55,336 nucleotides of DNA from a virus, in IMG/VR virus record IMGVR_UViG_3300027712_000039, positions 1 through 55,336 of that record, one strand, 5' to 3'. The position numbers and the translations under genes are program-made. Of the stretch, positions 19,366-46,197 are shown in pieces. Position 1 is the first letter of the stretch, and every line of letters starts with the position of its first letter. The notes below the pieces were generated by a model that was not told the origin of the DNA, made no database searches, and saw only the letters and a program-made list of their open reading frames with translations.

Positions 19366-20006
19366 TTAAAAAGTTAGTTCATTTTTCTGACTTACATATT
19401 AGGTTGTTTAAAGACCACGACTTGTATCGTAGGATTTTAACGGACATGTTAAATCAATTTAGAGAAATTCAACCCGATAGAATTGTATTTACAGGGGATT
19501 TAGTTCACTCTAAAAACCAAATGACACCTGAACTTGTTGAGTTCATTGCTTGGGTATTGACGGAGTGTTCAAAGATTGCTAAAACGGTATTAATACCAGG
19601 TAATCACGACTTCTTGGAAAGGAATTTGGAACGATTGGATGCATTAACGCCTGTTGTTGACTCATTAAATAATAACAATATTATTTATTATAAGAACAGA
19701 GGTGTGTATCAGGATGAGAATATTGATTGGTGTGTGTATTCACTTATGGACCATAACATCCCACCTACGATTGAAAAGTCTGACAGAGTTAAGATTGGAT
19801 TATTTCACGGCGCAATACAAGGATTAAAAACTGATTTAGGATTTAGTTTTGGGGAAGAGTCCTTCGACTCAAAAAAATTTGATGGATTAGAGATAGTATT
19901 ATGTGGTGACATCCATCTTAGGCAAACATTATACACTGAGTCAGTAATTGAAGTAGATGATGAAAAGGTTGACGAGTATCTTAAAAAAGGGTGGGATATA
20001 GTATAA
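19362..20006 (+). CDS. gp47/SbcD-like nuclease, N-terminal part of a split gene
   Basis: 214 residues. The calcineurin-like phosphoesterase motifs are intact: D10-L-H12, G45-D46-L-V-H49, G80-N81-H82-D83, then L-F-H-G and L-C-G-D-I-H. These bind the two Mn ions of Mre11/SbcD/T4 gp47. The protein ends at KKGWDIV, before the G-S-x-I-Q-Q-N-x-G-E capping segment that always follows in the family. That missing part is encoded separately at 20962-21186, after an intervening homing endonuclease gene. The gene is therefore split. With gp46 the complex resects double-strand ends; whether the two halves assemble into an active enzyme is inference. Confidence 0.85.
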   Translation: MIKKLVHFSDLHIRLFKDHDLYRRILTDMLNQFREIQPDRIVFTGDLVHSKNQMTPELVEFIAWVLTECSKIAKTVLIPGNHDFLERNLERLDALTPVVDSLNNNNIIYYKNRGVYQDENIDWCVYSLMDHNIPPTIEKSDRVKIGLFHGAIQGLKTDLGFSFGEESFDSKKFDGLEIVLCGDIHLRQTLYTESVIEVDDEKVDEYLKKGWDIV

Positions 20007-20059: not shown

Positions 20060-20980
20060 ATGGAGAAACAATGTCAGGTATGTGAAAAAAAATACATATC
20101 AAAAAGAAAGACTCAAAAATACTGTTCTGTTGACTGCCAATACGAATCGTATAGAAAACCTAAAATTGAAAAAGTAATAACGACATGTAATTTTTGTAAT
20201 AATGAATTTTACATATTACCTAATAAATTATTGAATGGTAAAGGAAAGTATTGTTGTAGAAAATGTAAAGACAATCATCAGAAAATTATTTATTCTGGAA
20301 CTAATAATCATTCATATGGTAAAAAACATAGTGAAGAGCGGAAAAAAAATATGTCAATTAGAGTTAAAAAATTATGGGAATCTGATGAGTATCGTAATAA
20401 AATAAAAAATGGATTTATCAAATTTGTTAAGACTAATGGATATTATCCTGGAACTGACGAAGAGTCAAATAAGAAAAGAAAAAAAACTATGGTTGAAAGA
20501 TATGGGGTATTACATAATTGGAATGGTAAATACGGAAAAAGAAAATGTGACAAAACGACTTTGATTAACTATGGTAAGTCTTCGGCTCAAATGTTGGTAG
20601 ATTATACCCATACTTATGGAAAAAAAACAGATATTGAGCAAATTTTTGAAAAAATATTGGAAGAATTAAAAATACCGTTCCAAACTAAGTTTAGAATTTA
20701 TGACAATAATAAGGTTAATTTTTGGTTTAAGGAATATGATTTTTTAATTTTAAATACTGATATATTAATTGAAGTGGATGGGGATTATTGGCATGGTAAT
20801 GAAGACGTATTTGAAGACTTATCTGAATTTCAAAAAACGATAAGAAAGAATGATGAAATTAAAGAAACTTTTGCAAATTTACAAGGATATAATATTGTAA
20901 GATTTTGGGAAAAAGATATTAAAAAAAATAAAGATGAAGTTAAAAATAAGATGAAAAAAATATGGGAAAAGTTAAATTAA
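20060..20980 (+). CDS. Homing endonuclease with zinc fingers and Vsr-like nuclease domain
   Basis: 306 residues. Two Cys4 knuckle pairs at the N-terminus (C-Q-V-C ... C-S-V-D-C and C-N-F-C ... C-C-R-K-C) are followed by a NUMOD3-like basic segment (N-N-H-S-Y-G-K-K-H-S-E-E-R) and another lysine-rich linker. The C-terminal third is a Vsr/EDxHD-type PD-(D/E)XK fold: an early helix D-I-E-Q-I-F, then I-L-I-E-V-D-G-D-Y-W-H-G-N, then K-N-D-E-I-K and Y-N-I-V-R-F-W-E. It sits exactly between the two halves of the gp47 gene and its 3' end overlaps the C-terminal half. The Lys/Asn-rich codon use differs from the flanking gene and matches the GIY-YIG gene at 3735, a sign of transfer. Confidence 0.82.
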   Translation: MEKQCQVCEKKYISKRKTQKYCSVDCQYESYRKPKIEKVITTCNFCNNEFYILPNKLLNGKGKYCCRKCKDNHQKIIYSGTNNHSYGKKHSEERKKNMSIRVKKLWESDEYRNKIKNGFIKFVKTNGYYPGTDEESNKKRKKTMVERYGVLHNWNGKYGKRKCDKTTLINYGKSSAQMLVDYTHTYGKKTDIEQIFEKILEELKIPFQTKFRIYDNNKVNFWFKEYDFLILNTDILIEVDGDYWHGNEDVFEDLSEFQKTIRKNDEIKETFANLQGYNIVRFWEKDIKKNKDEVKNKMKKIWEKLN

Positions 20981-21976: not shown

Positions 21977-22159
21977 ATGCCAACGTCAAGATTAAGACCA
22001 AACCACAAGCAGAAGGTTGCTGCGTGGAAATTAAGAAACATCCATGCTGAAAGACGCTATCAAAGAACAATGTCAGATTTGTTTGAAAAGATGAGACAAA
22101 CCGCTTCTGAAAAAACAGAAGGTGAAACATCAAATGAACCTGTTCAGCCCGCAAATTAA
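21977..22159 (+). CDS. Small basic protein before gp46
   Basis: 60 residues, with a strongly basic first half (L-R-P-N-H-K-Q-K-V-A-A-W-K-L-R-N) and an acidic, Thr-rich tail. It is 19 bases after the membrane-protein stop. A nucleic-acid-binding role is suggested by charge only. The 3' end may overlap gp46 if that gene starts upstream of 22176. Confidence 0.5.
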   Translation: MPTSRLRPNHKQKVAAWKLRNIHAERRYQRTMSDLFEKMRQTASEKTEGETSNEPVQPAN

Positions 22160-22175
22160 TTTCACAAAAGTTAGA

Positions 22176-24503
22176 ATGATAAAAGATTTAGATTTTTCAA
22201 AACTTGAAAATCCTTACGTACAAGTAGTATGGGAAGATACACCCGAAAACTTTACACAAGAAAAGTTAAAAAGTGTGAAAGCGTACTTTCAAAAAAAGTA
22301 TTCTACTACAAGCGTAAATGTTATTACCAAGTTAAAGAAAACAGAAGAAGTACAAGACAATGTTGATGTGACTATCAACATTATGGACGAAAACTATCAA
22401 CATGATTTGATTAAGTCCATCCTTCAATCTAAATCCCAAGAAAACCTTTACGAAGATATACTGAAGATTGACTCGTCGGTAAACAATAAGATGATTGCCG
22501 AACAAGATGAGATTGCTTCATTTAAGAAGTGGTATATCAAGAAGATTGAGTTTTCTAACTTTCTATCTTATGGTGAAAACCAACATATAAACTTCGAAAA
22601 GTTGGGTGGGATTACTGTGATTGAATCAGACCCACCTAACTTTGGAGGTAAAACTGTGTTGTCAGTGGACTTGTTAATGTTCTTGTTTTTTAATACAACA
22701 ACAAAGACAAACAAAGCTGAGGAGATATTCAACAGATATTCTGACAAAGATAAAGTATCTGTTAGAGGAGAGATTATTATTGATGGTGAGGATTACATTA
22801 TTGTTCGTGAACTTGAACGTAAGAAATCTAAATCAGGTGAATGGAATGTTAAGACAGAGTTAGACTTCTTTAAGAAGTTTCCAGATGGTTCATTGGTTAA
22901 ATTTACAGGTGAACAACGACGTGAAACTGAAAAGTTTATTAAGACATCAATTGGAAGTTATGATGACTTCTTGATGACGATATTGACTACTGGTACTAAC
23001 CTTGAGGATTTGTTGGACGCAAAACCAACGGCTCGTGGACAAGTTTTATCGAGATTTTTAGGATTAGATTTCCTTAAAAGAAAAGAAGAAACTGGTAAAG
23101 AAATATATTCAGAGTTCTCCAAGTCAATGATTTCAAACATTTACAATACTGAAACATTGAAGAACGAGAACGAAGAACTATTGGTTAAAAACCAAGAGTT
23201 TGATAAGAATATTATTGAAAGTGAAGTTAAGATTGAAGATGTTAAAGGTAGGATTGTTAAAGGACAAGAATATCGTGATAACCTTTTGAAATCAAAGGTT
23301 ATTGTTGATAGAGAAATTTCATTACTTAATCCTGAAAACACAAAAAAAGAAGTTGAAACTTTTGAATATCAAATCAAACAAAATGTTCAGTTAAGAGATA
23401 GTGTTAAGATTGTTGAACCTTCGGAGTTTTATTATGAGAATGAACACGATAAAGTTAAGGAGGAATACCAAAAAACTTACAAACAAAAGGTTGAGTTAGA
23501 TACCAACATATCATCCATTCAAAAGTTAAAGAGTTCAGTAAGTGGTGGTATCAAGTGTGAACATTGTGGTATTGAACTTATGAACGCAACAATTACACAA
23601 TCAAGAATCGCTGAACTTGACGGACTTATCGGGCAAAAAACCAAGATTGAGGGTTTAATACAAGAATTATCGAACAAAGAACAAGGTTTTGTTAAACTTA
23701 AAAAAGACTTTGATGAGTACGAAAGAAACAAACTTGTCTATGAAAAATACCAAGCTACAATTGAAAACTTTGAGTTAAAGAAAGAAAGTTTGTTAGATAA
23801 GTTAAAAAGATATGATGATGTACAAGATGTTATCAAATCTAACGAACAAATTGAAAGTCAAATCATTAAGGCCAACTTACGATTAGAAGATTTAAAACGA
23901 GAGGAACAACTTGTCCAACAGGAAGTAACCAATTCAAGATTTAAGATAACTAATAACCTTGAAAAGATTAATTCTAATAACAACTTAATTATTAAAATTT
24001 CTGAGGAACAACAAAAGGAAGTTAAGTATAAAGTTTATTTGGAGTTGTTTGGTAAGAACGGTATCTCAAAAAGAATTATGAAGAACATGATGCCTTTGAT
24101 TAACTCAGAACTTCAACGACTATTACAGGACTCATGTTATTTTAGATTGGAAATCCGTATTAGTGAAAAGAATGAGGTAGAATTTTGGATGATAGACAAT
24201 AATACTCAAATTGAAAAGTTAATGACTTCAGGTTCGGGATATGAAAAGACAATTGCTTCACTGGCACTAAGAGCGGTGATGGCTAAAGTATGTTCCTTAC
24301 CTAAACCAAACATTACTGTATTTGATGAAGTATTTGGTAAAATATCTAACGACAACTTGGAAATGGTCTATGAGTTCTTTATTAAGATTAAAGAATATTT
24401 TGAAAATATACTTGTTATTACTCACAACCCTATGATTTCAAACTGGGCCGATAACATCATCAAGATTACAAAAACTGACAATATTTCCAAAGTTTCACAT
24501 TAA
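22176..24503 (+). CDS. gp46/SbcC-like recombination ATPase
   Basis: 775 residues from the ATG at 22176; in-frame starts at 22122 (GTG) and 22134 (ATG) overlap the previous gene. After an unusual ~110-residue N-terminal extension comes the SMC/Rad50 head: F-S-N-F-L-S-Y-G-E-N, then a non-standard P-loop P-P-N-F-G157-G-K-T160. Two long coiled-coil arms flank a zinc hook C461-E-H-C464. The C-terminal head has the signature S-G-S-G-Y-E-K-T, Walker B I-T-V-F-D-E-V-F-G and the switch His in V-I-T-H-N-P. With gp47 it forms the Mre11-Rad50-type complex that resects DNA ends for recombination-dependent replication. Confidence 0.88.
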   Translation: MIKDLDFSKLENPYVQVVWEDTPENFTQEKLKSVKAYFQKKYSTTSVNVITKLKKTEEVQDNVDVTINIMDENYQHDLIKSILQSKSQENLYEDILKIDSSVNNKMIAEQDEIASFKKWYIKKIEFSNFLSYGENQHINFEKLGGITVIESDPPNFGGKTVLSVDLLMFLFFNTTTKTNKAEEIFNRYSDKDKVSVRGEIIIDGEDYIIVRELERKKSKSGEWNVKTELDFFKKFPDGSLVKFTGEQRRETEKFIKTSIGSYDDFLMTILTTGTNLEDLLDAKPTARGQVLSRFLGLDFLKRKEETGKEIYSEFSKSMISNIYNTETLKNENEELLVKNQEFDKNIIESEVKIEDVKGRIVKGQEYRDNLLKSKVIVDREISLLNPENTKKEVETFEYQIKQNVQLRDSVKIVEPSEFYYENEHDKVKEEYQKTYKQKVELDTNISSIQKLKSSVSGGIKCEHCGIELMNATITQSRIAELDGLIGQKTKIEGLIQELSNKEQGFVKLKKDFDEYERNKLVYEKYQATIENFELKKESLLDKLKRYDDVQDVIKSNEQIESQIIKANLRLEDLKREEQLVQQEVTNSRFKITNNLEKINSNNNLIIKISEEQQKEVKYKVYLELFGKNGISKRIMKNMMPLINSELQRLLQDSCYFRLEIRISEKNEVEFWMIDNNTQIEKLMTSGSGYEKTIASLALRAVMAKVCSLPKPNITVFDEVFGKISNDNLEMVYEFFIKIKEYFENILVITHNPMISNWADNIIKITKTDNISKVSH

Positions 24504-24504
24504 G

Positions 24505-24535
24505 TTTGGTGAATTAAAACTTTATACTATATTTG
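24505..24535 (+). promoter_or_regulatory. Bacteroidota-type promoter of the restriction-modification operon
   Basis: TTTG at 24505-24508 (-33 box), 19 bases, then TATATTTG at 24528-24535 (TAnnTTTG, -7 box). The ATG is at 24540, so the mRNA is probably leaderless or nearly so. This matches the consensus read by the Bacteroidota housekeeping sigma factor. Confidence 0.75.
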
Positions 24536-24539
24536 TAAC

Positions 24540-25229
24540 ATGAAACAATCAACAGGTCTTAGAAATCGATTAACGTATAATATTAAAAATACTAAATCCA
24601 AAAAACAAGATAGTCACATTAAAAATGTTACTGAAGAAGTCTTACAAAAAGTAAATGAAATATATCATAATTATCAGTTTGGTATTGATGGTAGAATAAT
24701 GTTACGTGACCTTGAAAAAATAGTTAATGGTAGTAATTTATCAACATCTAAAATAACATCTATCAAACCGGATGGAGGTTTTTTATGGATAAAAATAAAT
24801 GGTAAAAAACGATACATATTAATTCCTGAACAAAAACACCAGGGAACTAATGACCTAAGACTACTTGAAGGTAAACCTGTACAAGCGAAGGGGAATGCTG
24901 TAGAACGACTTGGAAAAAATTTAATTGGTTGTGAAACATTATTCCTCGATGAAGATATTTTTCCTTTTGTTGTTTTTCTACAAGGATGTGATTTTTGTGA
25001 TGATGAGAGTACTATTGGAGATAGAGTGAGAACTATTTTTAGATTCTTGCCTTCAAATACCATAAACCTTTTTTATAAAGGTAGAAGAGCTGGTTCATAT
25101 TTTATGAGAGGACACTCAATGAAAGAGATGCCTGGGACATCTGATTGGACAAATGAGGAAATGTTTGAAATTATGTTTACAATTGCAATAACTTCTATAG
25201 AATATTATTTAGAAAAGTATGGAAAATGA
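24540..25229 (+). CDS. EcoRI-family type II restriction endonuclease
   Basis: 229 residues, close in motif order to EcoRI (277 residues). The active site is intact: S-I-K-P-D78-G-G matches EcoRI Asp91, and P-E97-Q-K99-H-Q-G matches Glu111 and Lys113 with the H-Q-G after them. The recognition segment G-N119-A-V-E-R123 matches EcoRI Asn141 to Arg145, which contact the inner AATT bases. Also shared are F-P-F-V-V-F-L-Q-G with FPYVLFLEG, and E-E-M-F-E-I-M-F-T-I with KIMFEIMFDI. The protein is shorter, with a reduced N-terminus and loops. It has a host-type promoter of its own and overlaps the methyltransferase gene by 11 bases. A site containing AATT is likely; GAATTC is the simplest guess. Confidence 0.85.
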   Translation: MKQSTGLRNRLTYNIKNTKSKKQDSHIKNVTEEVLQKVNEIYHNYQFGIDGRIMLRDLEKIVNGSNLSTSKITSIKPDGGFLWIKINGKKRYILIPEQKHQGTNDLRLLEGKPVQAKGNAVERLGKNLIGCETLFLDEDIFPFVVFLQGCDFCDDESTIGDRVRTIFRFLPSNTINLFYKGRRAGSYFMRGHSMKEMPGTSDWTNEEMFEIMFTIAITSIEYYLEKYGK

Positions 25230-26322
25230 AAAGTATTTAACTGAACAACTTATAACTTATATTGGTAATAAACGTGCGTTATTAGGGTTTATTGGTGAAT
25301 CTATAAATGATATTAAGCGTGAACTTGATTTAGATAAATTAATTACTTTTGATGGATTTGCGGGTTCTGGGGTTGTTTCAAGATATTTGAAACAACACTC
25401 ATCAATGGTCTATTCAAATGATTTAGAAAAATATTCGGCGACAGTAACTAAATCATATCTTACTAATAAATCGGAGATTGATTTAAATCTTTTAAGTGAA
25501 ATTTATAAAGAAATTGATAAATTAAAAAAAACCACTCAATTTGGACTTGGGATAATCGAAGAACTTTATAGTCCAAAGAATACTTACGATGTTAAGGCTG
25601 GTGAAAGGTGTTTCTATACAAATGAGAATGCTAAAATTATTGATAATATTCGTAGAATTATAGATACTGATTTAGTACCTGAAAAATATAAAGAAATTGT
25701 ATTATCAAACTTATTACATAAATCATCGGTACATACAAACACTTCAGGAGTATTTAAAGGATTTTATAAGTCAAAAAATAGTGGTATTGGTAAATTTGGA
25801 GGTGATGGTGAGAACGCCTTGCAAAGAATCATGGGTGAAATAACATTAGAAGAGAACATTTTTAGTGAATATGAATGTGATTATCTTGTGTTAAATGAGG
25901 ACGTTAATACCGCTGTTGAAAAAATAGGTCGTGTTAATATTGCGTATTTTGACCCACCATATAATCAACATCCATATAGTTCAAACTACCATTTATTAAA
26001 CACTATACATGATTATGTGAGACCTGAAAAAATATCTAATGTATCAGGAATTCGACAAGATTGGAATAAATCGGATTATAACTATAAACAAAGTGCTGAA
26101 AAAAGTTTAGAAACTTTAATATCTAAAACTAACTCAGATTTTATATTATTATCATATAATAATGAAGGTATAATTACATCTGATAAAATATTTGAAATAT
26201 TGTCGGATTATGGTGTTGTCGAATTAAAAAAACGAGAATATAATACATTTAGAGGTAGTAGAAACTTAAAAGACAGGGAAAATAAAGTAGATGAGTTACT
26301 TTATATATTAAAGAAAAATTAA
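25219..26322 (+). CDS. D12-class adenine-N6 DNA methyltransferase of the restriction system
   Basis: 367 residues. T-Y-I-G-N-K-R-A-L-L-G-F-I at 13-25 is the N-terminal D12 motif and F-D-G-F-A-G-S-G at 44-51 binds S-adenosylmethionine. F-D245-P-P-Y248-N-Q-H-P-Y-S-S-N-Y-H-L-L is the catalytic motif and matches type II methyltransferases of the DPPYNxRQY-NYH kind. The ATG lies inside the last codons of the endonuclease gene, so translation of the two is coupled. Its job is to methylate the site cut by the upstream enzyme. M.EcoRI itself is of another methyltransferase class as far as I recall, so this would be a mixed pairing. A GAATTC site lies within the gene at 26048-26053. Confidence 0.85.
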   Translation: MENEKYLTEQLITYIGNKRALLGFIGESINDIKRELDLDKLITFDGFAGSGVVSRYLKQHSSMVYSNDLEKYSATVTKSYLTNKSEIDLNLLSEIYKEIDKLKKTTQFGLGIIEELYSPKNTYDVKAGERCFYTNENAKIIDNIRRIIDTDLVPEKYKEIVLSNLLHKSSVHTNTSGVFKGFYKSKNSGIGKFGGDGENALQRIMGEITLEENIFSEYECDYLVLNEDVNTAVEKIGRVNIAYFDPPYNQHPYSSNYHLLNTIHDYVRPEKISNVSGIRQDWNKSDYNYKQSAEKSLETLISKTNSDFILLSYNNEGIITSDKIFEILSDYGVVELKKREYNTFRGSRNLKDRENKVDELLYILKKN

Positions 26323-26330
26323 TTTTGTAT

Positions 26331-26338
26331 TATCTTTG
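26331..26338 (+). promoter_or_regulatory. TAnnTTTG -7 element
   Basis: TATCTTTG eight bases before the ATG at 26346. No clear -33 TTTG at the proper distance, so a weaker promoter. Confidence 0.45.
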
Positions 26339-26345
26339 TAAAACT

Positions 26346-26900
26346 ATGATTATGAATTATATATTATTTGCATTCGGGGAATATAAAGAAAACCCACAAG
26401 CCTTAAATCTTTTAACTGAAACGGTATCACAGATATCAAAAGGTGAAATAAAATTCCAACATGGAGACAGTGGTGTCATAATAACATTTGGCACGAAGTT
26501 GGATTGGGAAGATATAGACGACTATATGAAGAAAAATATTGTTAAATTAACGGCAATGTATTTTGTTTTTCCTCTTGAATCTGACATGATATATTCTATG
26601 GACGAAGATATAGAAAAACATTTGTTTGAAAACACTGACATTTTGACAGAAAATGAAGAATTAAATCAGACTCGATACGTAAGTGATAATACAGGAGTAC
26701 CTGAATTTTTAGGAGGTATTCATATTCATAAGTCTCGTTCTTTTGATGATTTCTTTAAAATTTTTAATGAAGAAGTTATTCAAGATGTACCAGTTATGAC
26801 GCTTAATGATTTATTGGACAAGATAAAAGAAAAAGGTATTGATAGTTTATCAGAAATTCAATTAAAACAATTAGAAATTTACTCAAAACAAATAATATGA
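26346..26900 (+). CDS. Unknown protein upstream of sigma factor
   Basis: 184 residues from the ATG at 26346; an upstream TTG at 26325 lies in the promoter-like stretch. No known motif. The N-terminus (M-N-Y-I-L-F-A-F-G-E-Y, then V-I-I-T-F-G-T-K-L-D-W) looks like a small alpha/beta domain, followed by acidic and helical segments. Its stop overlaps the sigma factor start (ATGATGG at 26897), suggesting co-translation. An anti-sigma or sigma-linked function is possible from position but not shown. Confidence 0.6.
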   Translation: MIMNYILFAFGEYKENPQALNLLTETVSQISKGEIKFQHGDSGVIITFGTKLDWEDIDDYMKKNIVKLTAMYFVFPLESDMIYSMDEDIEKHLFENTDILTENEELNQTRYVSDNTGVPEFLGGIHIHKSRSFDDFFKIFNEEVIQDVPVMTLNDLLDKIKEKGIDSLSEIQLKQLEIYSKQII

Positions 26901-27697
26901 TGGAAAAAAACCAAGTTATCCCGATTAATCAAGACGAAGTACAAATCTACCTTAAAGAACTTAGACGTATTAAGGTAATGACTCCTGAGAGAGAAAGAGA
27001 ACTGTCGGCTAAGATGCAAACCCCCGAGACACCTGATAGTGAAAGGGCCAGTATATGTAAAGAATTGTTAGAGGGTAATTTACGATTTGTTATCACTGTT
27101 GCTAAACAGTATCAGGGGCAAGGTGTTGATTTCAGTGATTTAGTTGCTGAAGGAAATATCGGACTTATGAAGGCGATTAATAGTTTTGATTGGACGAAGA
27201 ACCTTCGTTTTATATCATATGCGGTGTGGTGGATTAGACAATCCATTCTACAGTCTTTAAATGAACACTCAAGAACAATCCGTATCCCTGTTAACGTTAT
27301 CCAAGACCTATATAAAGAGAAGAAACGTACAGACAAGACAGGTGAAAGAATTGACGACAGATTTGCTAATCTTCCATCAACGATTAATCTACAAACTCAG
27401 ATTAATGAAGATGGTGACACGTTGATTGATTTGATTGTTAACAAGGATAGTGATATGCCTGATGAGGCATTTAATAATGGCGACCAACTTAAAGACGGAT
27501 TGTTTAATATTATGAATATACTAGATGAACGTGAAAGACAGATTATTGAAGACTATTATGGTATCTCAGGTACACCAAGAACACTTGAAGATATTGGTTC
27601 AGATTTCAGTTTAACTAAGGAAAGAGTAAGACAAATTAAAGAAAAAGCGTTACGAAAATTACGTAATGAGAGTGTTACTTTGTTTGATTATATGTAA
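26897..27697 (+). CDS. Phage-encoded sigma-70 factor (RpoD-like)
   Basis: 266 residues. Region 1.2 remnant (D-E-V-Q-I-Y-L-K-E-L) is followed by region 2 at about 50-115: N-L-R-F-V-I-T-V-A-K-Q-Y, D-L-V-A-E-G-N-I-G-L-M-K-A-I, then R-F-I-S-Y-A-V-W-W-I-R-Q-S-I, the -10 reading and melting helix. A region 3 segment R-T-I-R-I-P-V-N-V and region 4 with T-L-E-D-I-G ... K-E-R-V-R-Q-I-K-E-K-A-L-R-K-L-R close it. The length and motifs fit a primary-type sigma without the acidic region 1.1. It would redirect the host RNA polymerase; candidate targets are the TATTTATA elements. Start overlaps the preceding stop. Confidence 0.9.
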   Translation: MMEKNQVIPINQDEVQIYLKELRRIKVMTPERERELSAKMQTPETPDSERASICKELLEGNLRFVITVAKQYQGQGVDFSDLVAEGNIGLMKAINSFDWTKNLRFISYAVWWIRQSILQSLNEHSRTIRIPVNVIQDLYKEKKRTDKTGERIDDRFANLPSTINLQTQINEDGDTLIDLIVNKDSDMPDEAFNNGDQLKDGLFNIMNILDERERQIIEDYYGISGTPRTLEDIGSDFSLTKERVRQIKEKALRKLRNESVTLFDYM

Positions 27698-36886: not shown

Positions 36887-39800
36887 TTATATTTTATTTA
36901 TTGAGTAGTATGAAATATTAGTGGTGTCTGAAGCACTTGATTGGTTTATATTAAACATAATGTATTGGTCAACAGTCCAGTTAATACTTAAAGAAGATAC
37001 TGCACTTGTACTTGTTGTTGAGTCATCAGTAACATTAGTTATTGATGTGTTAAAAACTTCACTATTTGCGCCTTTTATTGAAACTACTCTTAATAATTCT
37101 CCAAATACTATTGTTGCGCCGGCATTAAATACCCCTATTGTTTGTGACCCTGTTAAATTTAAAGTTGTGTTAGTGCTTATCCTATAGTTCATAGTTCCAT
37201 TTGTTGCATTTTTTCTAACTCTGACTTTGAATACAACGGTGTCACCTGTAGTGTATGTATTTGCGGGTATTATGATAGATTTTAATATTGTGAACGCTCC
37301 TGTAGTTGTGTTTCCTGTGCTATCAATACTGTCTGAAAATCTTGTTACTACGTTACCTTGATATGTTGTTGCAGATATTGAACCGGATATTATGTTATTT
37401 GTGTAAAGTGTACGAGCGGCAGTTGCATTTAATCCGCAACCAATTGCCGCTGAATATAAACCCGAAACGGTATTACCACAACCGGCTAATACTCCACCAT
37501 ATTTACCACTAACTGTATTACGTTTTCCACCACCTACATATGAGTAATATGATGAAACAGTATTACAATATCCTCCACTGATTGTTGAGTAATAACCACT
37601 TATTGTGTTACAAGCTCCACCACCAATAAATGATAAACCACAAGATATAGTGTTTCTGGAACCACCACCTATGGTTGCACGAACTCCCAATGAATTGTTA
37701 ATACTTCCACCACCTACGAATGATTGTAACCCTCCTGCTCTATTATTTAGACCACCCCCAATGAATGACGTTGTTCCACTCGTAATATTTCCGTTACCTC
37801 CACCTATGAATGATTGACTAGCACACGATGTGTTATTTAACCCTCCAGATACTGTTGAATATGTTCCTAATGAGGTATTACCACACCCACCAACCACACT
37901 TGAGTAGCTACCACTTGATGTATTTCCACTACCGCTACCTACAAATGCGTATGAGGCTTTAGATTGGTTACGTATCCCACCTACAATGGATGAGTACCCA
38001 CCACTTGAGGTAACAGTGTTTAGACGACCACCACCAACAAATGAACAACTAGCACACGAACTGTTACTAACACCTCCAACTACAGTTGAGTAACACGCAC
38101 TTGCTGTGTTAACATTTCCACCCCCAACAAATGAAATTCCACCACTTGCTATGTTAGCAGTTCCTCCCCCAACAAATGATAATTGACCACTTGCAGTGTT
38201 ACTAGTTCCCCCACCAATCACAGTACAAGTGTTGCTTGCACTATTATTTTTTCCACCACCAATAAAAGAATAAACTCCTGAATTGGTATTACTTAAACCT
38301 CCGGTTATTGTTAATAATGTTGCCGTTGTTGCTGATATTGTATTAGAACATACACCATTTGTAAAGTTTGTTGCTCCGTTAACAGTTCCACCTGTGAAAC
38401 TTCCACCTGTTGAGTTTATTGTATAGTTACCACTACCATTATTTGTAATTGTTATATTAGTTCCTTGAGTTAATCCGCTAACAGGTAAGTTATTGTATGT
38501 TGTTGCGGATATTGTAGTTGCGGTTAATCCACCTTGAATTAAAGTATTACCACTAACTTGTAATTTTTGACCTGAATCGGTTGTTTTACCAATTATTGTA
38601 TTACCACTTGTTCCATTTAAAATGACATTACCTACGGTAGTTTCAATAGCTCTAAAGTCAAATGCTGAAGTTATTGTCGGATTAACGTAAATACCTCTAC
38701 TTACACCACTTGCCCCACCTGTTTGGTTAATGGTTGGATTTATTTGTATTACATTGTATATTCCACCACCACTTGTTGGATTAAATCCTCTTGAAATTCC
38801 TACTAATGTTCTATTTGAAGTAGTATTTGCGGCATCTCCTGATGCGTTACTTAAAATTATATCAATTCCAACATCAGTAGTGCTTAAAGCACTTCTGATA
38901 TTTATAGTTTCCCTTCCTGCCGTTCCTGAAGGAAATACTCCTGCAAGTGTTGAAGTAGTTCCTACATAAACACCAGTCGTACTTCTAATATCACTTACGA
39001 AGCGAGCCGTTCCATTAACGTCAAGTTTATATCCGGCATCAGTTGTTGTTCCTATTAAGGTATTACCACTCGTCCCATTTAAAATGACATTACCTGAAGA
39101 ATTTGGTGATACTATATTTTGCCAGTTTACACCATTATATAAACTCAAGTAATTATCCGTTGTTTGGTATACGGTTAAACCTGTTGCCGGAGATGAAATT
39201 GCATCTCGTTGTGTGGATGTCATGCGAGGAGGAAGAAAACCTTGAGTAGTAGAATTGATATTAAGCAAAGCAGAAGCATCAAGCGTTGGCAATCCACCTC
39301 TACCCATTGCAAATCCTGCTGCTGTTATTCTAAAGTTATTTCCGTTAAAATTACCTTGCGTTTGAAAGTTAGTATCAGCCGCTGCATTTGAATAAATAGC
39401 TAACGAAAATGCACTTGCCGTTTGATTGTTTATTTGAATTGCACTTCCAAAAGTTGAATTTTGAAATAAAGCCGTTCCACTTGTTCGAGTAGTTCCACTC
39501 ACATCGAGCTTGTACCCTGCGTCTGTTGTTGTGTTGATTAAGACGTTGCCCCTTAATGCAGTAAGAGTAATACCGCTATTACCCAAAACAACGCTATTTG
39601 AACCCAAGCCAATAGCATTGTAACCTATTACTATTTGATTTGTTTGAGAATCTGCAAGTGCTTTAGTATTAGCACCTATAAAAACACTTTGATTTGTTGT
39701 TGTTATCTCAGTTGTTCCGTCTGCTATGTAATAGCCTGCATCTCTACCAAATGCTGAGTTGTTAGAGCCTGATGTCATTCCATAAAGTGCGGTAGTTCCA

Positions 39801-40417
39801 AATACAGAATTACTACTTCCTGTGCTAAAACGCAAAGCTAAATAACCATACGCAGAATTTGCAGCGCCTGTTGTATTACTTGAACCTAATGCTAAGTAAC
39901 CTACTGCTGTATTTGCTGTACCTGTTGTGTTGTTATTTAATGCCGTGTCCCCAACAGCTGTGTTTGTTGCAATATTGCCACCACCACGACCTACTCTCAC
40001 ACTATTGATTCTTGCATCTCCACTAACAACATCTACTCTAAAAAGAGGCGAAACCGTACCAATACCCAACCTATTATTAACATTGTCCCAAAATAGATTT
40101 GAATTGTTTTGACTCAATGTTCCACCACTCCCCTGAAATATTACCGAACCTGTTGTAAATGGTGATGATAAAGTTGTCGCAGATATTGTTGTTGCAGTTA
40201 AAGCCTGTAATGACGTATTTCCTGTAACAGTTAAATTACCATTAACAGTTAATCCTGTGATACTTCCCCCACTAAATGAAGGTAAATTATTATAAGTGGT
40301 TGCAGAAATGGAATACATTTGAAATGTACCACCACTGGTTAATGTTGCCCAAGTTGTATTATTTGTGGTAAAGTTTAAAGTATTACCTGAACTATAATAT
40401 ATTCCGTTTTCTGCCAT
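36887..40417 (-). CDS. Large tail fibre with two YadA-like head regions
   Basis: 1176 residues. The N-terminus (MAENGIYYSSGNTLNFTTNN) and the SATTYNNLPSFSGGSITGL cassette are followed by an F-W-D-N cassette. A first head-like region lies at about 140-300 with N-T-A-V-G-x-x-A-L repeats (39,500-40,000). The middle has the Bacteroidota fibre segment S-T-T-Q-G-F-L-P-P-R-M-T. A second head region at about 715-1020 has S-F-V-G-G-G and S-V-V-G-G repeats like those in the fibre at the left edge (37,440-38,290). A beta-rich end follows. It shares a perfect 52-bp cassette with the plus-strand S74 fibre. Function: trimeric adhesin fibre, host range determinant. No S74 domain visible. Confidence 0.85.
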   Translation of the reverse strand: MAENGIYYSSGNTLNFTTNNTTWATLTSGGTFQMYSISATTYNNLPSFSGGSITGLTVNGNLTVTGNTSLQALTATTISATTLSSPFTTGSVIFQGSGGTLSQNNSNLFWDNVNNRLGIGTVSPLFRVDVVSGDARINSVRVGRGGGNIATNTAVGDTALNNNTTGTANTAVGYLALGSSNTTGAANSAYGYLALRFSTGSSNSVFGTTALYGMTSGSNNSAFGRDAGYYIADGTTEITTTNQSVFIGANTKALADSQTNQIVIGYNAIGLGSNSVVLGNSGITLTALRGNVLINTTTDAGYKLDVSGTTRTSGTALFQNSTFGSAIQINNQTASAFSLAIYSNAAADTNFQTQGNFNGNNFRITAAGFAMGRGGLPTLDASALLNINSTTQGFLPPRMTSTQRDAISSPATGLTVYQTTDNYLSLYNGVNWQNIVSPNSSGNVILNGTSGNTLIGTTTDAGYKLDVNGTARFVSDIRSTTGVYVGTTSTLAGVFPSGTAGRETINIRSALSTTDVGIDIILSNASGDAANTTSNRTLVGISRGFNPTSGGGIYNVIQINPTINQTGGASGVSRGIYVNPTITSAFDFRAIETTVGNVILNGTSGNTIIGKTTDSGQKLQVSGNTLIQGGLTATTISATTYNNLPVSGLTQGTNITITNNGSGNYTINSTGGSFTGGTVNGATNFTNGVCSNTISATTATLLTITGGLSNTNSGVYSFIGGGKNNSASNTCTVIGGGTSNTASGQLSFVGGGTANIASGGISFVGGGNVNTASACYSTVVGGVSNSSCASCSFVGGGRLNTVTSSGGYSSIVGGIRNQSKASYAFVGSGSGNTSSGSYSSVVGGCGNTSLGTYSTVSGGLNNTSCASQSFIGGGNGNITSGTTSFIGGGLNNRAGGLQSFVGGGSINNSLGVRATIGGGSRNTISCGLSFIGGGACNTISGYYSTISGGYCNTVSSYYSYVGGGKRNTVSGKYGGVLAGCGNTVSGLYSAAIGCGLNATAARTLYTNNIISGSISATTYQGNVVTRFSDSIDSTGNTTTGAFTILKSIIIPANTYTTGDTVVFKVRVRKNATNGTMNYRISTNTTLNLTGSQTIGVFNAGATIVFGELLRVVSIKGANSEVFNTSITNVTDDSTTSTSAVSSLSINWTVDQYIMFNINQSSASDTTNISYYSINKI
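38523..38574 (-). repeat. 52-bp long-range inverted repeat, right copy
   Basis: Exact reverse complement of 7986-8037. Both copies are within fibre genes of opposite orientation, about 30 kb apart, so homologous recombination would invert the whole interval between them. Confidence 0.9.
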
Positions 40418-40420
40418 ATT

Positions 40421-43342
40421 TTATATTATTTGAACCCAGCCTGTAGATTTATACATAAATAGCCCTTCAGGGAAATCTGTACAATAAACCATTAAACTTG
40501 GTTGAGGAGATACAATTGATGTTCTTTGGGTATTTGTCATTCTTGGAAATAAAACACCTTGAGTTGTACTTGCCATTTGTAGTAATGCACAAGATATATC
40601 ACTCTCTGAACCTATTGTTGTTTTTGTTGTTGCAGATATTGTTGTTGCGGTTAATCCTTGTAATGAAGTATTTCCCGTTACTGTTAGTCCTCCATTAATA
40701 GTTAAACCTGTAACTGTATTGAATAAAACTGAATATGTTCCACCGGTGTTATTGGTAAATGTAAAAGTATTGTTAGAATAAGTTCCTCCTGTCGTTCTAA
40801 TATCTGTTGGTAGGTTAGAATAAGTTGTTGCAGATATTGTTGTAGCGGTAACACCACTTTGGAATACCGTACCACCCGTTACAGTTCCCCCACTTAATGG
40901 TAGGTATTTTCCTGTAACATTATCCGGTAAATTTTGATATGTTGTTGCGGATATTGTAGTTGCGGTTAATCCCGATAATAAAGTATTACCTGTAACATTT
41001 AATGTATTTGCGGTTAATCCGTTTGTAAAATTAGTTGACCCACTTACAGTTCCTCCCGTAAACCCATTACTTAATGAACCATCACCCATAACATATTGTA
41101 ACGATGTTCCACCTTGTGTTATGAATTTATCAGCATTTATAAATTGGAAATAATCGATTGAGTTAGTATTAGTTCCTGTAAGAGATGAATTTGCTTTATC
41201 GTAAACAGTATTAAATATTGAATAGATACCTGCTACACTAATTGGGGCTACGTTATTACCCGCTTGAACAAGTACTTGACTATTAGCCAAAGTTAAATTT
41301 GTTAAAGCACCTGTAATAGTTATAGCATTTCCTCCTAAAGCTGTAACAATACAATCAACTATTGCTAAATTACCTGCACTAGCTGAAGGTGTAACAACAC
41401 TATTACATCCTTTTATAATAACCTGTGCTGATGCGTTACTAACTGATACACCAACATTTTTATTACCATTAATAATAGTAGTTCCACTACCTGAAATTTG
41501 AATACCTGAAATACATTGCATTTCTGTATTAATAATTTCTACATAACCACTAGATGATTTGGTTACATTAGTATCTACACTACAGTTACTTATATAAGCT
41601 TGAGCTGTTCCACTAATGACAAGATTAGACATCTTTAAACCTGAAATACGAGAACCTGAACCTAATGAACCAATAGTCAAAGTCCCATATAATAAAGTAT
41701 TAGCCCCTGTTAACTCAGATGATGCAATTGTAGTATTACCACTTGCTACAGTAATGTTTTCATTATAACCGCCTGGATGAACAATAATTGTTTTACGAGA
41801 CCCCGTCAATAAAGTTAATGCCTGAGTAATAGAAGCAACAGGATTAAGTAAAGTACCATTACCTGTAGTGTCATTACCATCTATTTGGCTAACGTGTATC
41901 TCATATTGAAAATTTGACGAAACATTATAATACGTTGTTGCAGATATTGTAGTTGCCGTTAAAGATTGTAATGAAGTATTTCCCGTTACTGTTAGTCCTC
42001 CATTAACAGTTAAACCTGTGACGGTATTAAATAATACAGAATATGTTCCACCAGTGTTATTAGTGAATGTAAAATTGTTATTAGAATAAGTTGCTCCAGT
42101 TGTACGAATATCTGTCGGTAAATTCTGATAAGTTGTTGCCGATATTGTAGTTGCAGTTAATCCTTGTAGTGAAGTATTTCCTGTTACGGTTAAGTTGCCA
42201 TTAATAGTTCCACCACTTTTATCAAATTTATTACTTATATCGGTTTGAATTGTTTGAATTATTGAACATCCGATTAATGTACCACAAGTCAAAGCCGAAT
42301 TGTCTGAAAATGGTGTTATTCCATAAGAATAATGTTGGGTACCTTCAGTGACTAAAGTTATTGAATGTGATTGATTACTAGTATTCGTCGCTCTTACTTT
42401 TACAACAATTCTGTCAGTTGTATTTATTGATGAACCCGAATAATATCCGTCCGTTAATTGCATTGATGGATTTGGGGAATTTGTAGTTACTGGAGCCGGG
42501 TCAGTTGTAACAAGTAGAGTTTCGGTTCCCCCTGTGGTTCTTAAATAAACCTCACAGAATATATTAAAAGATGCGTTACTATTTTGTTTGAAAGAATGAA
42601 GATAAAAGCTCCAATATCCTGCAGGTATTAGAGATGCGTTTGGATATCCAGTTGGTGTTTGAAATGACGCAATTGTTCTAGTGACTCCATTACTAATTGT
42701 AACAGCCGTTGTTTGTTGTGAGTTTGTTGTTCCACTTGGACTAAATTCTTGATATGGTGGTTGTGAGTTTGATAAATTTAAATAATATATTTGTCCTCCA
42801 GGTCCTCCTATTGGAAGTCCAGTAACCGTAAAAGTTCCTCCTGTATTATTTAAAAAGGTAATTTCTCCGTTTGTATAAGTTCCTCCCGTTACATAAACAT
42901 CGGTTGGTAAATTCTGATAAGTTGTTGCAGAAATTGTGTTAGCCGTTAACCCACTTTGGAATATTGTTCCACCTGTTACAGTCCCTCCACTTAATGGGAG
43001 ATAATCTCCTGAAGTTGAACCTGTAAACACAATAGTTACCGCACCTGTTGAAGAATTTGCAGATAAACCATTACCTACTGTAATACTTGTAACACCTGAT
43101 GACGGAGAGGCTCCCGATATAGGACCCCAATAAGCATAACCTGTCCCATCTGTTAATAATGCATAACCAGGTTGTTCGGTTCCATTTGAATATGTAAAAC
43201 CACCATTAATCGTAAGTCCCGATGAGAATATTGGATTAACAGGAATAGTTCCACCTATTCTATAAACAACACCTGTTGATATGTCAGATTGTAATACGTA
43301 ATTATAAGAATCCTTAATTAATTGGTCTTTAATATCGGCCAT
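40421..43342 (-). CDS. Tail fibre with parallel beta-helix segment
   Basis: 973 residues. N-terminus MADIKDQLIKDSYNYVLQSD, probably the particle-attachment end. Cassettes GLTINGGLTVTGNTSLQ and TATTISATTY recur at least four times. About residues 475-715 form a pectate-lyase-like right-handed beta-helix: the start signature G-N-D-T-T-G-N-G-T-L-L-N-P-V-A-S-I-T-Q-A-L leads into regular short strands (I-S-N-C-S-V, I-I-N-T-E-M, V-D-C-I-V). The end LLQMASTTQGVLFPRMTNTQ is typical of Bacteroidota fibres. No clear catalytic site, so adhesion rather than depolymerase is assumed. It ends three bases before the next fibre's start. Confidence 0.82.
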   Translation of the reverse strand: MADIKDQLIKDSYNYVLQSDISTGVVYRIGGTIPVNPIFSSGLTINGGFTYSNGTEQPGYALLTDGTGYAYWGPISGASPSSGVTSITVGNGLSANSSTGAVTIVFTGSTSGDYLPLSGGTVTGGTIFQSGLTANTISATTYQNLPTDVYVTGGTYTNGEITFLNNTGGTFTVTGLPIGGPGGQIYYLNLSNSQPPYQEFSPSGTTNSQQTTAVTISNGVTRTIASFQTPTGYPNASLIPAGYWSFYLHSFKQNSNASFNIFCEVYLRTTGGTETLLVTTDPAPVTTNSPNPSMQLTDGYYSGSSINTTDRIVVKVRATNTSNQSHSITLVTEGTQHYSYGITPFSDNSALTCGTLIGCSIIQTIQTDISNKFDKSGGTINGNLTVTGNTSLQGLTATTISATTYQNLPTDIRTTGATYSNNNFTFTNNTGGTYSVLFNTVTGLTVNGGLTVTGNTSLQSLTATTISATTYYNVSSNFQYEIHVSQIDGNDTTGNGTLLNPVASITQALTLLTGSRKTIIVHPGGYNENITVASGNTTIASSELTGANTLLYGTLTIGSLGSGSRISGLKMSNLVISGTAQAYISNCSVDTNVTKSSSGYVEIINTEMQCISGIQISGSGTTIINGNKNVGVSVSNASAQVIIKGCNSVVTPSASAGNLAIVDCIVTALGGNAITITGALTNLTLANSQVLVQAGNNVAPISVAGIYSIFNTVYDKANSSLTGTNTNSIDYFQFINADKFITQGGTSLQYVMGDGSLSNGFTGGTVSGSTNFTNGLTANTLNVTGNTLLSGLTATTISATTYQNLPDNVTGKYLPLSGGTVTGGTVFQSGVTATTISATTYSNLPTDIRTTGGTYSNNTFTFTNNTGGTYSVLFNTVTGLTINGGLTVTGNTSLQGLTATTISATTKTTIGSESDISCALLQMASTTQGVLFPRMTNTQRTSIVSPQPSLMVYCTDFPEGLFMYKSTGWVQII

Positions 43343-45354: not shown

Positions 45355-46197
45355 ATGCTAAGTTATATTGGAGGTAAAAGTAAAATCGCACCAAACCTAA
45401 TTATACCTAATATCCCAAAGGATATTGAAATTTTTATTGAGGTATTTGGTGGAATGTTTTGGACTTTTTTTAAAATGGATTTGAAACAATATCCTAATTT
45501 GAAAAGAGTTGTTTATAACGACTTTAATCCTTTGAACTATAATTTGTTTATGTGTCTTCAGGACCCTAAAACTTTGTTATCTGCGATTAATAACATTCCA
45601 TGTCAACAACAAGGAGTAGAGGTAACACCACCAGTTTATAAAGAACAATTTAATGAGTTCCAAAAGGAAATTTTCTCTCATGGTTTAACAATTAACTATC
45701 CTGATTATGGTGTTGCTGCGAAGTATGCTTATGTTCTAACTCAAGTATTCAGTGGTTCAAAACCTGAGACATCAAGTTTTATTGATTTGAAGGGTAAGTA
45801 TAAGTCAAAATATCTTACCTTTAGAGATAAATTATCTAAACCTGAGTGGGTGGAACATTTCAATAGAATATCGGAGTTTAGATTGGGAGATTTTGAAGAT
45901 GTGATTAAAGAGTTTGATAGTCCTACAACATATTTTTATGTAGACCCACCATATTGGAAGACTGAAAACTATTACTCAAACCACGATTTTGATAGGGAAG
46001 ACCACGAAAGATTGGCAGATTGTTTGAAAGGTATTAAAGGTAAGTTTAGTTTATCTTACTACGATTTTCAGTTGTTGAATGAGTGGTTCCCAAAGGAGGA
46101 ATACAAATGGGAGAAGAAAGAATTTGCTAAAGCGGCGGCGGCGAAAAAAGGAAAAACCCAAAATATGGGGGAAGAATTATTAATTATGAATTATTGA
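45355..46197 (+). CDS. Orphan Dam-like adenine-N6 DNA methyltransferase
   Basis: 280 residues of D12 class. S-Y-I-G-G-K-S-K-I-A-P (3-13) and E-V-F-G-G-M-F bind S-adenosylmethionine, V-Y-N-D-F-N-P-L-N is motif II-like, and Y-V-D197-P-P-Y200 is the catalytic motif. No restriction gene is next to it, so it is an orphan. Usual role: protection against host restriction or marking of DNA. Its sequence differs clearly from the methyltransferase at 25219. The stop overlaps an in-frame upstream start of the next gene, which really begins at 46221. Confidence 0.85.
   Translation: MLSYIGGKSKIAPNLIIPNIPKDIEIFIEVFGGMFWTFFKMDLKQYPNLKRVVYNDFNPLNYNLFMCLQDPKTLLSAINNIPCQQQGVEVTPPVYKEQFNEFQKEIFSHGLTINYPDYGVAAKYAYVLTQVFSGSKPETSSFIDLKGKYKSKYLTFRDKLSKPEWVEHFNRISEFRLGDFEDVIKEFDSPTTYFYVDPPYWKTENYYSNHDFDREDHERLADCLKGIKGKFSLSYYDFQLLNEWFPKEEYKWEKKEFAKAAAAKKGKTQNMGEELLIMNY

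What the first reader, a model, noticed from the sequence alone, without database searches (positions are those of the whole stretch)
24505..26322. A phage-borne EcoRI-family restriction-modification operon
The 229-residue protein keeps the EcoRI active site (PDG, then E-x-K-H-Q-G) and the recognition segment G-N-A-x-E-R, yet is shorter than EcoRI. It is translationally coupled (11-base overlap) to a D12-class DPPY adenine methyltransferase, which I believe is a different class from M.EcoRI. The pair has a near-consensus Bacteroidota promoter placed so that the mRNA is almost leaderless, so it could be expressed at once by host polymerase. Complete type II systems are unusual on lytic-type phages. 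It may exclude competing phages, degrade unmodified host DNA, or act as a selfish element next to the gp46 gene.
Basis: partly seen in the sequence, partly recalled or inferred. Interest (0 to 1): 0.85.

Follow-up and report, generated by a model that had tools for sequence, protein, structure and literature searches.

The report
Phage EcoRI-like restriction-modification cassette in swap site
A large bacterial virus carries a shortened relative of the EcoRI DNA-cutting enzyme together with its protecting methylase, inserted at one spot in the genome where related viruses carry other, mostly restriction-modification-like methylase cassettes, or nothing at all.

Summary
Window 24540-25229 encodes a 229-aa EcoRI-family nuclease (Pfam EcoRI 3e-18; the predicted fold matches only EcoRI). 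All catalytic and GNAxER residues are present. Its gene overlaps a D12-class adenine methyltransferase by 11 nt. The promoter is TTTG-N19-TATATTTG; by F. johnsoniae numbering the transcript would start on the A of the ATG.

New here: the pair is a ~1.8-kb insertion between gp46 and a DUF6576/sigma-factor gene pair. About a dozen contigs with 97-98% identical gp46 have an empty site. The insertion reuses the -33 half of a conserved phage promoter and brings its own -7. In 10 of 46 dereplicated relatives the same interval holds other methylase cassettes of about nine kinds (enrichment P about 1e-6 to 1e-12). The phages contain no GATC (0 versus ~120-135 expected), and nine cassettes at the site in GATC-free phages also lack it, so they have probably long circulated among phages.

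The enzyme pair itself is a phage clade of a bacterial EcoRI-like/D12 family, so the system is known in kind. The exchangeable site is the interesting part. Likely role: attack on unmodified DNA, first of all rival phages, possibly also the host chromosome. Activity, specificity and host are untested.

The parts
24505..24535 (+). Bacteroidota-type promoter: -33 TTTG (24505-24508), 19-nt spacer, -7 TATATTTG (24528-24535); predicted TSS 24540
   Evidence: conserved -33/-7 pair in 17 of 19 relatives at this junction; numbering from PMC6847099
24540..25229 (+). EcoRI-family type II restriction endonuclease, 229 aa; catalytic D78/E97/K99; recognition segment G118-N119-A120-V-E122-R123
25219..26322 (+). 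D12-class (N6-adenine) DNA methyltransferase, 367 aa, DPPY motif; start codon inside the RE gene
25219..25229 (+). 11-nt R/M coding overlap; the M start codon overlaps the R stop in the same way in L001, L080, L082, L086 and L088
24520..26324 (+). Inserted segment (about 1.8 kb), absent from near-identical relatives
   Evidence: junction alignment against L010
26331..26338 (+). -7 element (TATCTTTG) of the displaced native promoter of the downstream gene; no TTTG/TTG -33 partner remains upstream
22122..24503 (+). gp46/SbcC-like recombination nuclease subunit, left border of the variable site
   Evidence: phrog_77 E=3.5e-39; 97-98% aa identity to empty-site relatives
26325..26900 (+). DUF6576-like gene (weak match just below the cut-off; ATG probably at 26346), right border of the variable site; followed by phage sigma factor 26897-27697

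Best explanation
The pair is an intact type II R-M cassette carried by a large T4-like phage (close relatives have 240-kb contigs) of probably a Bacteroidota host. It sits in an exchangeable cargo site between gp46 and the DUF6576/sigma-factor genes. Proposed working: virion DNA arrives already adenine-methylated from the previous cell. Host RNA polymerase reads the leaderless promoter at once. The EcoRI-like homodimer then cuts DNA that lacks the mark: co-infecting phages, including sister phages with an empty or different cassette, and to an unknown extent the host chromosome. The methyltransferase, translated by coupling from the same mRNA, marks progeny DNA. Because an unmarked sister is cut and a marked one is not, cassettes of different specificity replace one another at this site by recombination in the conserved flanking genes. 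Shown: genes, family and predicted fold, conserved residues, gene overlap, promoter conservation, insertion, alternative cassettes, purifying selection in relatives. Inferred: activity, specificity (probably an AATT core, from GNAxER), timing, target.
For: Family and fold. Invariant catalytic and recognition residues. Purifying selection on RE and MTase in related phages (dN/dS 0.16-0.20 and 0.07-0.17). All-phage R-to-M clade with support 95/99 and a conserved overlap. Empty sites in relatives with 97-98% gp46 identity. Alternative methylase or R-M cassettes in 10 of 46 dereplicated records: REase_II-type partner with N6_N4 or D12 methylase (L011, L037 by similarity, L012), IIG-like (L039), Eco57I-type (L036, L059), unknown partner plus methylase (L038, L050, L063, L072) (enrichment). 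Promoter -33 half-site reused with identical 19-nt spacing. Precedents: marseillevirus REase is transcribed before its MTase and can degrade DNA of other viruses lacking the system (PMC7253447); chlorovirus R-M attacks host DNA (PMC7019647).
Against: No activity data. RE model confidence is moderate (pLDDT 74; first 22 residues below 50). The recognition site is not known. 699 AATT sites in the window would make the phage depend wholly on its own methylation if the target is AATT. Several partner proteins in the alternative cassettes match no nuclease family, so they are called REases only by position. The window's own RE and MTase are a single sequence with no close copy, so selection could be measured only in relatives. 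In chloroviruses the restriction enzymes were not responsible for exclusion (PMC7019647).
Confidence: 0.62

Rival explanations
1. The main target is the host chromosome: the RE fragments host DNA early, shutting off host transcription and feeding nucleotides to the phage, as proposed for chloroviruses.
For: Leaderless promoter of host type. Chlorovirus precedent (PMC7019647). EcoRI-like enzymes without a neighbouring MTase exist in other viral contigs (L171-L183), as expected if cutting non-self DNA is the point.
Against: Close relatives live without the cassette or with unrelated ones. Rapid turnover of cassette types is not expected if host degradation is the point. T4-like phages usually have other nucleases for this (general knowledge, not tested here).
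Confidence: 0.3
2. The cassette is a selfish element that spreads by cutting cassette-less genomes in mixed infections and being copied in during repair; benefit to the phage is incidental.
For: Exact intergenic insertion and many alternative cassettes at one site beside recombination gene gp46. A NUMOD3-containing HNH-type homing-endonuclease gene absent from relatives sits 1.1 kb before gp46.
Against: No target-site specificity of the homing type is expected from an EcoRI-like enzyme. Fourfold-site divergence from G003 shows no tract limited to the cassette flanks.
Confidence: 0.15
3. The methyltransferase is the useful part (protection against host restriction) and the RE is a passenger or already dead.
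For: Solitary MTases are common in phages (PMC4176335) and about a dozen viral relatives of this MTase have no EcoRI-like neighbour. The phage has a second, conserved D12 MTase.
Against: All catalytic residues are intact and RE genes of related phages are under purifying selection. The coupled R-M unit is conserved across six phage sequences.
Confidence: 0.1

Closest known systems
EcoRI / RsrI restriction-modification (type IIP, GAATTC)
   Same: Same nuclease family and fold, PD-(E)xK site, GNAxER recognition segment; R gene before M gene in EcoRI.
   Different: 229 instead of 277 aa; D12 methylase (PF02086) instead of EcoRI_methylase (PF13651); genes overlap; no second consensus promoter for M inside R, whereas EcoRI has separate M promoters and antisense control (PMC12707154).
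Bacterial short EcoRI-like / D12 pairs, e.g. Paracoccus marcusii plasmid pCP157_17
   Same: Same two protein families side by side; RE 39% identical over its full length.
   Different: Bacterial loci with a neighbouring MTase of the two types searched are M-to-R (all but 3) or convergent (3), none R-to-M; the window's clade is R-to-M and all-phage.
EcoRI-like R-M of other viral contigs (marine T4-like and a psbA-bearing cyanophage-like contig)
   Same: EcoRI-like RE, R-to-M order, overlapping or fused genes.
   Different: Methylase of another type (NPPF, weakly N6_Mtase-like), far apart in the RE tree.
Marseillevirus and chlorovirus R-M systems
   Same: Complete type II R-M in a lytic virus; in marseilleviruses REase expressed before MTase and acting on viruses lacking the mark (PMC7253447); in chloroviruses attack on host DNA (PMC7019647).
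   Different: Eukaryotic hosts; chlorovirus enzymes are packaged in the virion; no exchangeable genomic site was compared here.

Membership tests
EcoRI family of type II restriction endonucleases | Sequence-profile match over the curated cut-off | tested here: met
   PF02963 66.3 bits, cut-off 22; PDB EcoRI E=5e-15
EcoRI family of type II restriction endonucleases | PD-(D/E)xK catalytic residues (EcoRI D91, E111, K113) | tested here: met
   D78, E97, K99; invariant in 8 homologues
EcoRI family of type II restriction endonucleases | GNAxER recognition segment (EcoRI 140-145) | tested here: met
   G118-N119-A120-V-E122-R123
EcoRI family of type II restriction endonucleases | EcoRI fold | tested here: met
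   Only EcoRI entries match significantly (E 1e-11 to 1e-13, TM 0.63-0.70); model pLDDT 74
EcoRI family of type II restriction endonucleases | Cleavage at GAATTC or another AATT-core palindrome as a homodimer | not testable with these tools
   needs purified enzyme
EcoRI R-M system proper | EcoRI-type methylase partner (PF13651) | tested here: not met
   partner is MethyltransfD12; no alignment to M.EcoRI
D12-class adenine methyltransferase | PF02086 match, FxGxG-type motif followed by DPPY | tested here: met
   66.8 bits, cut-off 22; DGFAGSG and DPPYNQHP
Type II R-M system | RE and MTase of the same specificity encoded together | tested here: inconclusive
   encoded together and overlapping; shared specificity not testable here
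Homing endonuclease element | Homing endonuclease family and insertion at its own target | tested here: not met
   RE is EcoRI-type with an adjoining methylase; no homing family match

The most novel reading that the evidence does not exclude
A clade of large phages keeps a dedicated interchangeable restriction-modification port beside its recombination gene gp46, behind a conserved host-type promoter, and swaps cassettes of different specificity as weapons in phage-phage competition: a viral counterpart of bacterial defence-island turnover.
Probability: 0.45. Interest if true: 0.78.

Novelty: new variant of a known kind. Interest (0 to 1): 0.6.

Why it matters
[quoted passage not shown] PMC4176335). 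Here one phage clade carries methylase cassettes, many of R-M type, at one site, with natural empty, EcoRI-type and other-type versions in near-identical genomes. That makes a clean natural experiment: nearly the same phage with and without an R-M system. It would let one test directly whether phage R-M serves exclusion of rivals, host DNA destruction or selfish spread, and it offers a set of uncharacterised small restriction enzymes.

Tried and rejected
1) Idea that R-to-M order marks phage-borne systems. The first scan looked absolute (bacterial loci M-to-R or, in three, convergent, none R-to-M; viruses R-to-M, fused or, in one, convergent). But classical EcoRI plasmids are R-to-M, three viral contigs are M-to-R (L202, L208, L210), and independent pairs on the tree give no significance. 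Kept only as a clade character.

2) Avoidance of AATT or GAATTC as a hint of specificity: AATT ratio 0.87 in the window, but in homologous regions 418/439 against 429/443 and 434/451 in relatives without the cassette. No signal.

3) Recent gene-conversion tract around the cassette: fourfold-site divergence is a mosaic, low near the cassette but equally low elsewhere.

4) MunI or other EcoRI relatives in the PDB by profile: only EcoRI found.

5) INPHARED phages (RE no match, MTase only under 33% identity), PHROGs (RE none), bacterial genomes with the single RE sequence (none). The alignment query found 46 bacterial relatives.

6) Genome-wide enrichment of the promoter motif: none; only conservation at the junction supports it.

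Full report
What is there. The window is an IMG/VR virus record of 55,336 bases, a fragment of a large T4-like phage: gp46/SbcC-like subunit, primase, tail fibre and phage sigma factor are present. Its close relatives are contigs up to 240-242 kb. ORF 24540-25229 encodes 229 residues that match Pfam EcoRI (3e-18), PADLOC REase_II (2e-22) and EcoRI in the PDB (5e-15). The model (pLDDT 74) matches only EcoRI structures significantly (TM 0.63-0.70). The catalytic D78, E97, K99 and the G118-N119-A120-x-E122-R123 segment are present, and most are invariant in eight viral homologues. ORF 25219-26322 is a D12-class methyltransferase with the DPPY motif, unrelated to M.EcoRI, which is PF13651. The 11-nt overlap is real, and the M start codon overlaps the R stop in the same way in five related phage loci.

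Promoter. TTTG-N19-TATATTTG lies at 24505-24535. The consensus is not enriched over the window. At the junction between gp46 and the next gene, however, 17 of 19 relatives have the same TTTG-N17..21-TAnnTTTG, against 0.9% of background stretches. In F. johnsoniae the G of the -7 element is at -5 (PMC6847099), which places the start at 24540, the A of the ATG. In relatives this promoter lies before the downstream gene. In the window the insertion keeps the phage's -33 half and supplies a new -7 at identical spacing. The old -7 (26331-26338) is left without a -33. The cassette has thus taken over a phage promoter; its function is inferred.

Insertion and alternative cassettes. In a dozen contigs with 97-98% identical gp46 the next gene follows gp46 directly. 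The window differs from them by an insertion of about 1.8 kb, roughly 24520-26324. At the same place L011 has a REase_II-type protein plus an N6_N4 methylase, and L012 a D12 methylase plus a REase_II-type protein. More distant relatives have a IIG-like enzyme (L039), Eco57I-type methylases (L036, L059) and methylases beside small proteins of unknown family (L038, L050, L063, L072); L037 has the L011 type. By position of D12, N6_N4 and Eco57I methylases in 46 dereplicated records (4.85 Mb), two conserved methylases lie far downstream (one of D12 and one of N6_N4 type, about +12 to +54 kb) and a separate cluster of nine lies at +2.4 to +4.9 kb; L039 makes ten. The interval totals about 96 kb. 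Ten there against 0.4 expected (accessory methylases only, by my own classification) or 1.6 expected (all methylases) gives P about 5e-12 or 4e-6. Relatedness among records makes these P values optimistic. Other occupants of the interval are metabolic or unknown genes, so the site is not exclusive to R-M.

Age of the association. The window has no GATC (shuffles expect about 120) and neither do 60 kb of G003 and 59 kb of G007. Most relatives at the locus also have none. The window's cassette and nine alternative cassettes in GATC-free phages also contain none, where composition would give about 47 in sum. This suggests that they have long circulated among such phages; it is an inference, since sites could also be purged quickly.

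Relatives and evolution. The RE belongs to a supported clade of six phage sequences, all R-to-M (95/99). It lies within a wider family of short EcoRI-like enzymes with D12 partners found across many bacterial phyla (46 loci) and on a Paracoccus plasmid. Other viral contigs pair EcoRI-like enzymes with a different methylase type, sometimes fused, including one beside psbA. The R-to-M order is a clade character, not a proven phage rule. In sister phages L001, L086 and L088 the pair sits on the other side of gp46. RE and MTase genes of related phages are under purifying selection.

Mechanism. The best-supported reading is a working weapon against unmarked DNA. The R-first, leaderless arrangement is tolerable for a phage because virion DNA would come already methylated; this is inference. 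Marseilleviruses transcribe the REase first, and their enzyme can degrade viruses lacking the mark (PMC7253447). Chloroviruses use theirs on host DNA, and there the enzymes were not responsible for exclusion (PMC7019647). Presence, absence and type of cassette vary among near-identical phages, which favours competition between phages as the main selective force, but sequence cannot exclude host degradation or selfish spread.

Novelty. The enzyme family, the D12 partner and virus-borne R-M are each known. The combination in this phage clade and the exchangeable site beside gp46 are, as far as the searches here reach, not described: no phage match in INPHARED, and rarity of phage R-M in PMC4176335. 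The library holds only open papers, so prior description cannot be excluded.

Noticed in passing
window 1-55336; L191-L196; most of L007-L078: Complete absence of GATC (0, about 120-135 expected) in the window and in 119 kb of two close relatives, although the phages carry a conserved D12 methylase; strong pressure from a GATC-cutting enzyme of host or phage.
   Followed up: partly
window 20060-20980: HNH-type homing endonuclease gene (NUMOD3) absent from close relatives, whose alignment breaks at 19916/21005.
   Followed up: partly
window 36887-43342 (minus strand): Two large genes (1176 and 973 aa) without family matches, absent from the homologous stretches of G003 and G007.
   Followed up: no
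window 45355-46197: Second D12 methyltransferase (280 aa), conserved in relatives; no nuclease partner was recognised.
   Followed up: no
L171-L183: EcoRI-like nucleases in viral contigs with no methylase of the types searched beside them, in L178 next to a thyX-like gene; possible solitary restriction enzymes.
   Followed up: no
L160 656-2099; L167-L170, L184: EcoRI-like R-M pair directly after a psbA-like gene in a cyanophage-like contig; single-chain RE-MTase fusions in other viral contigs.
   Followed up: no
L079/L197: Relative of the window's MTase (61%) without an EcoRI-like partner, next to a putative 235-aa zinc-ribbon endonuclease-like gene.
   Followed up: no
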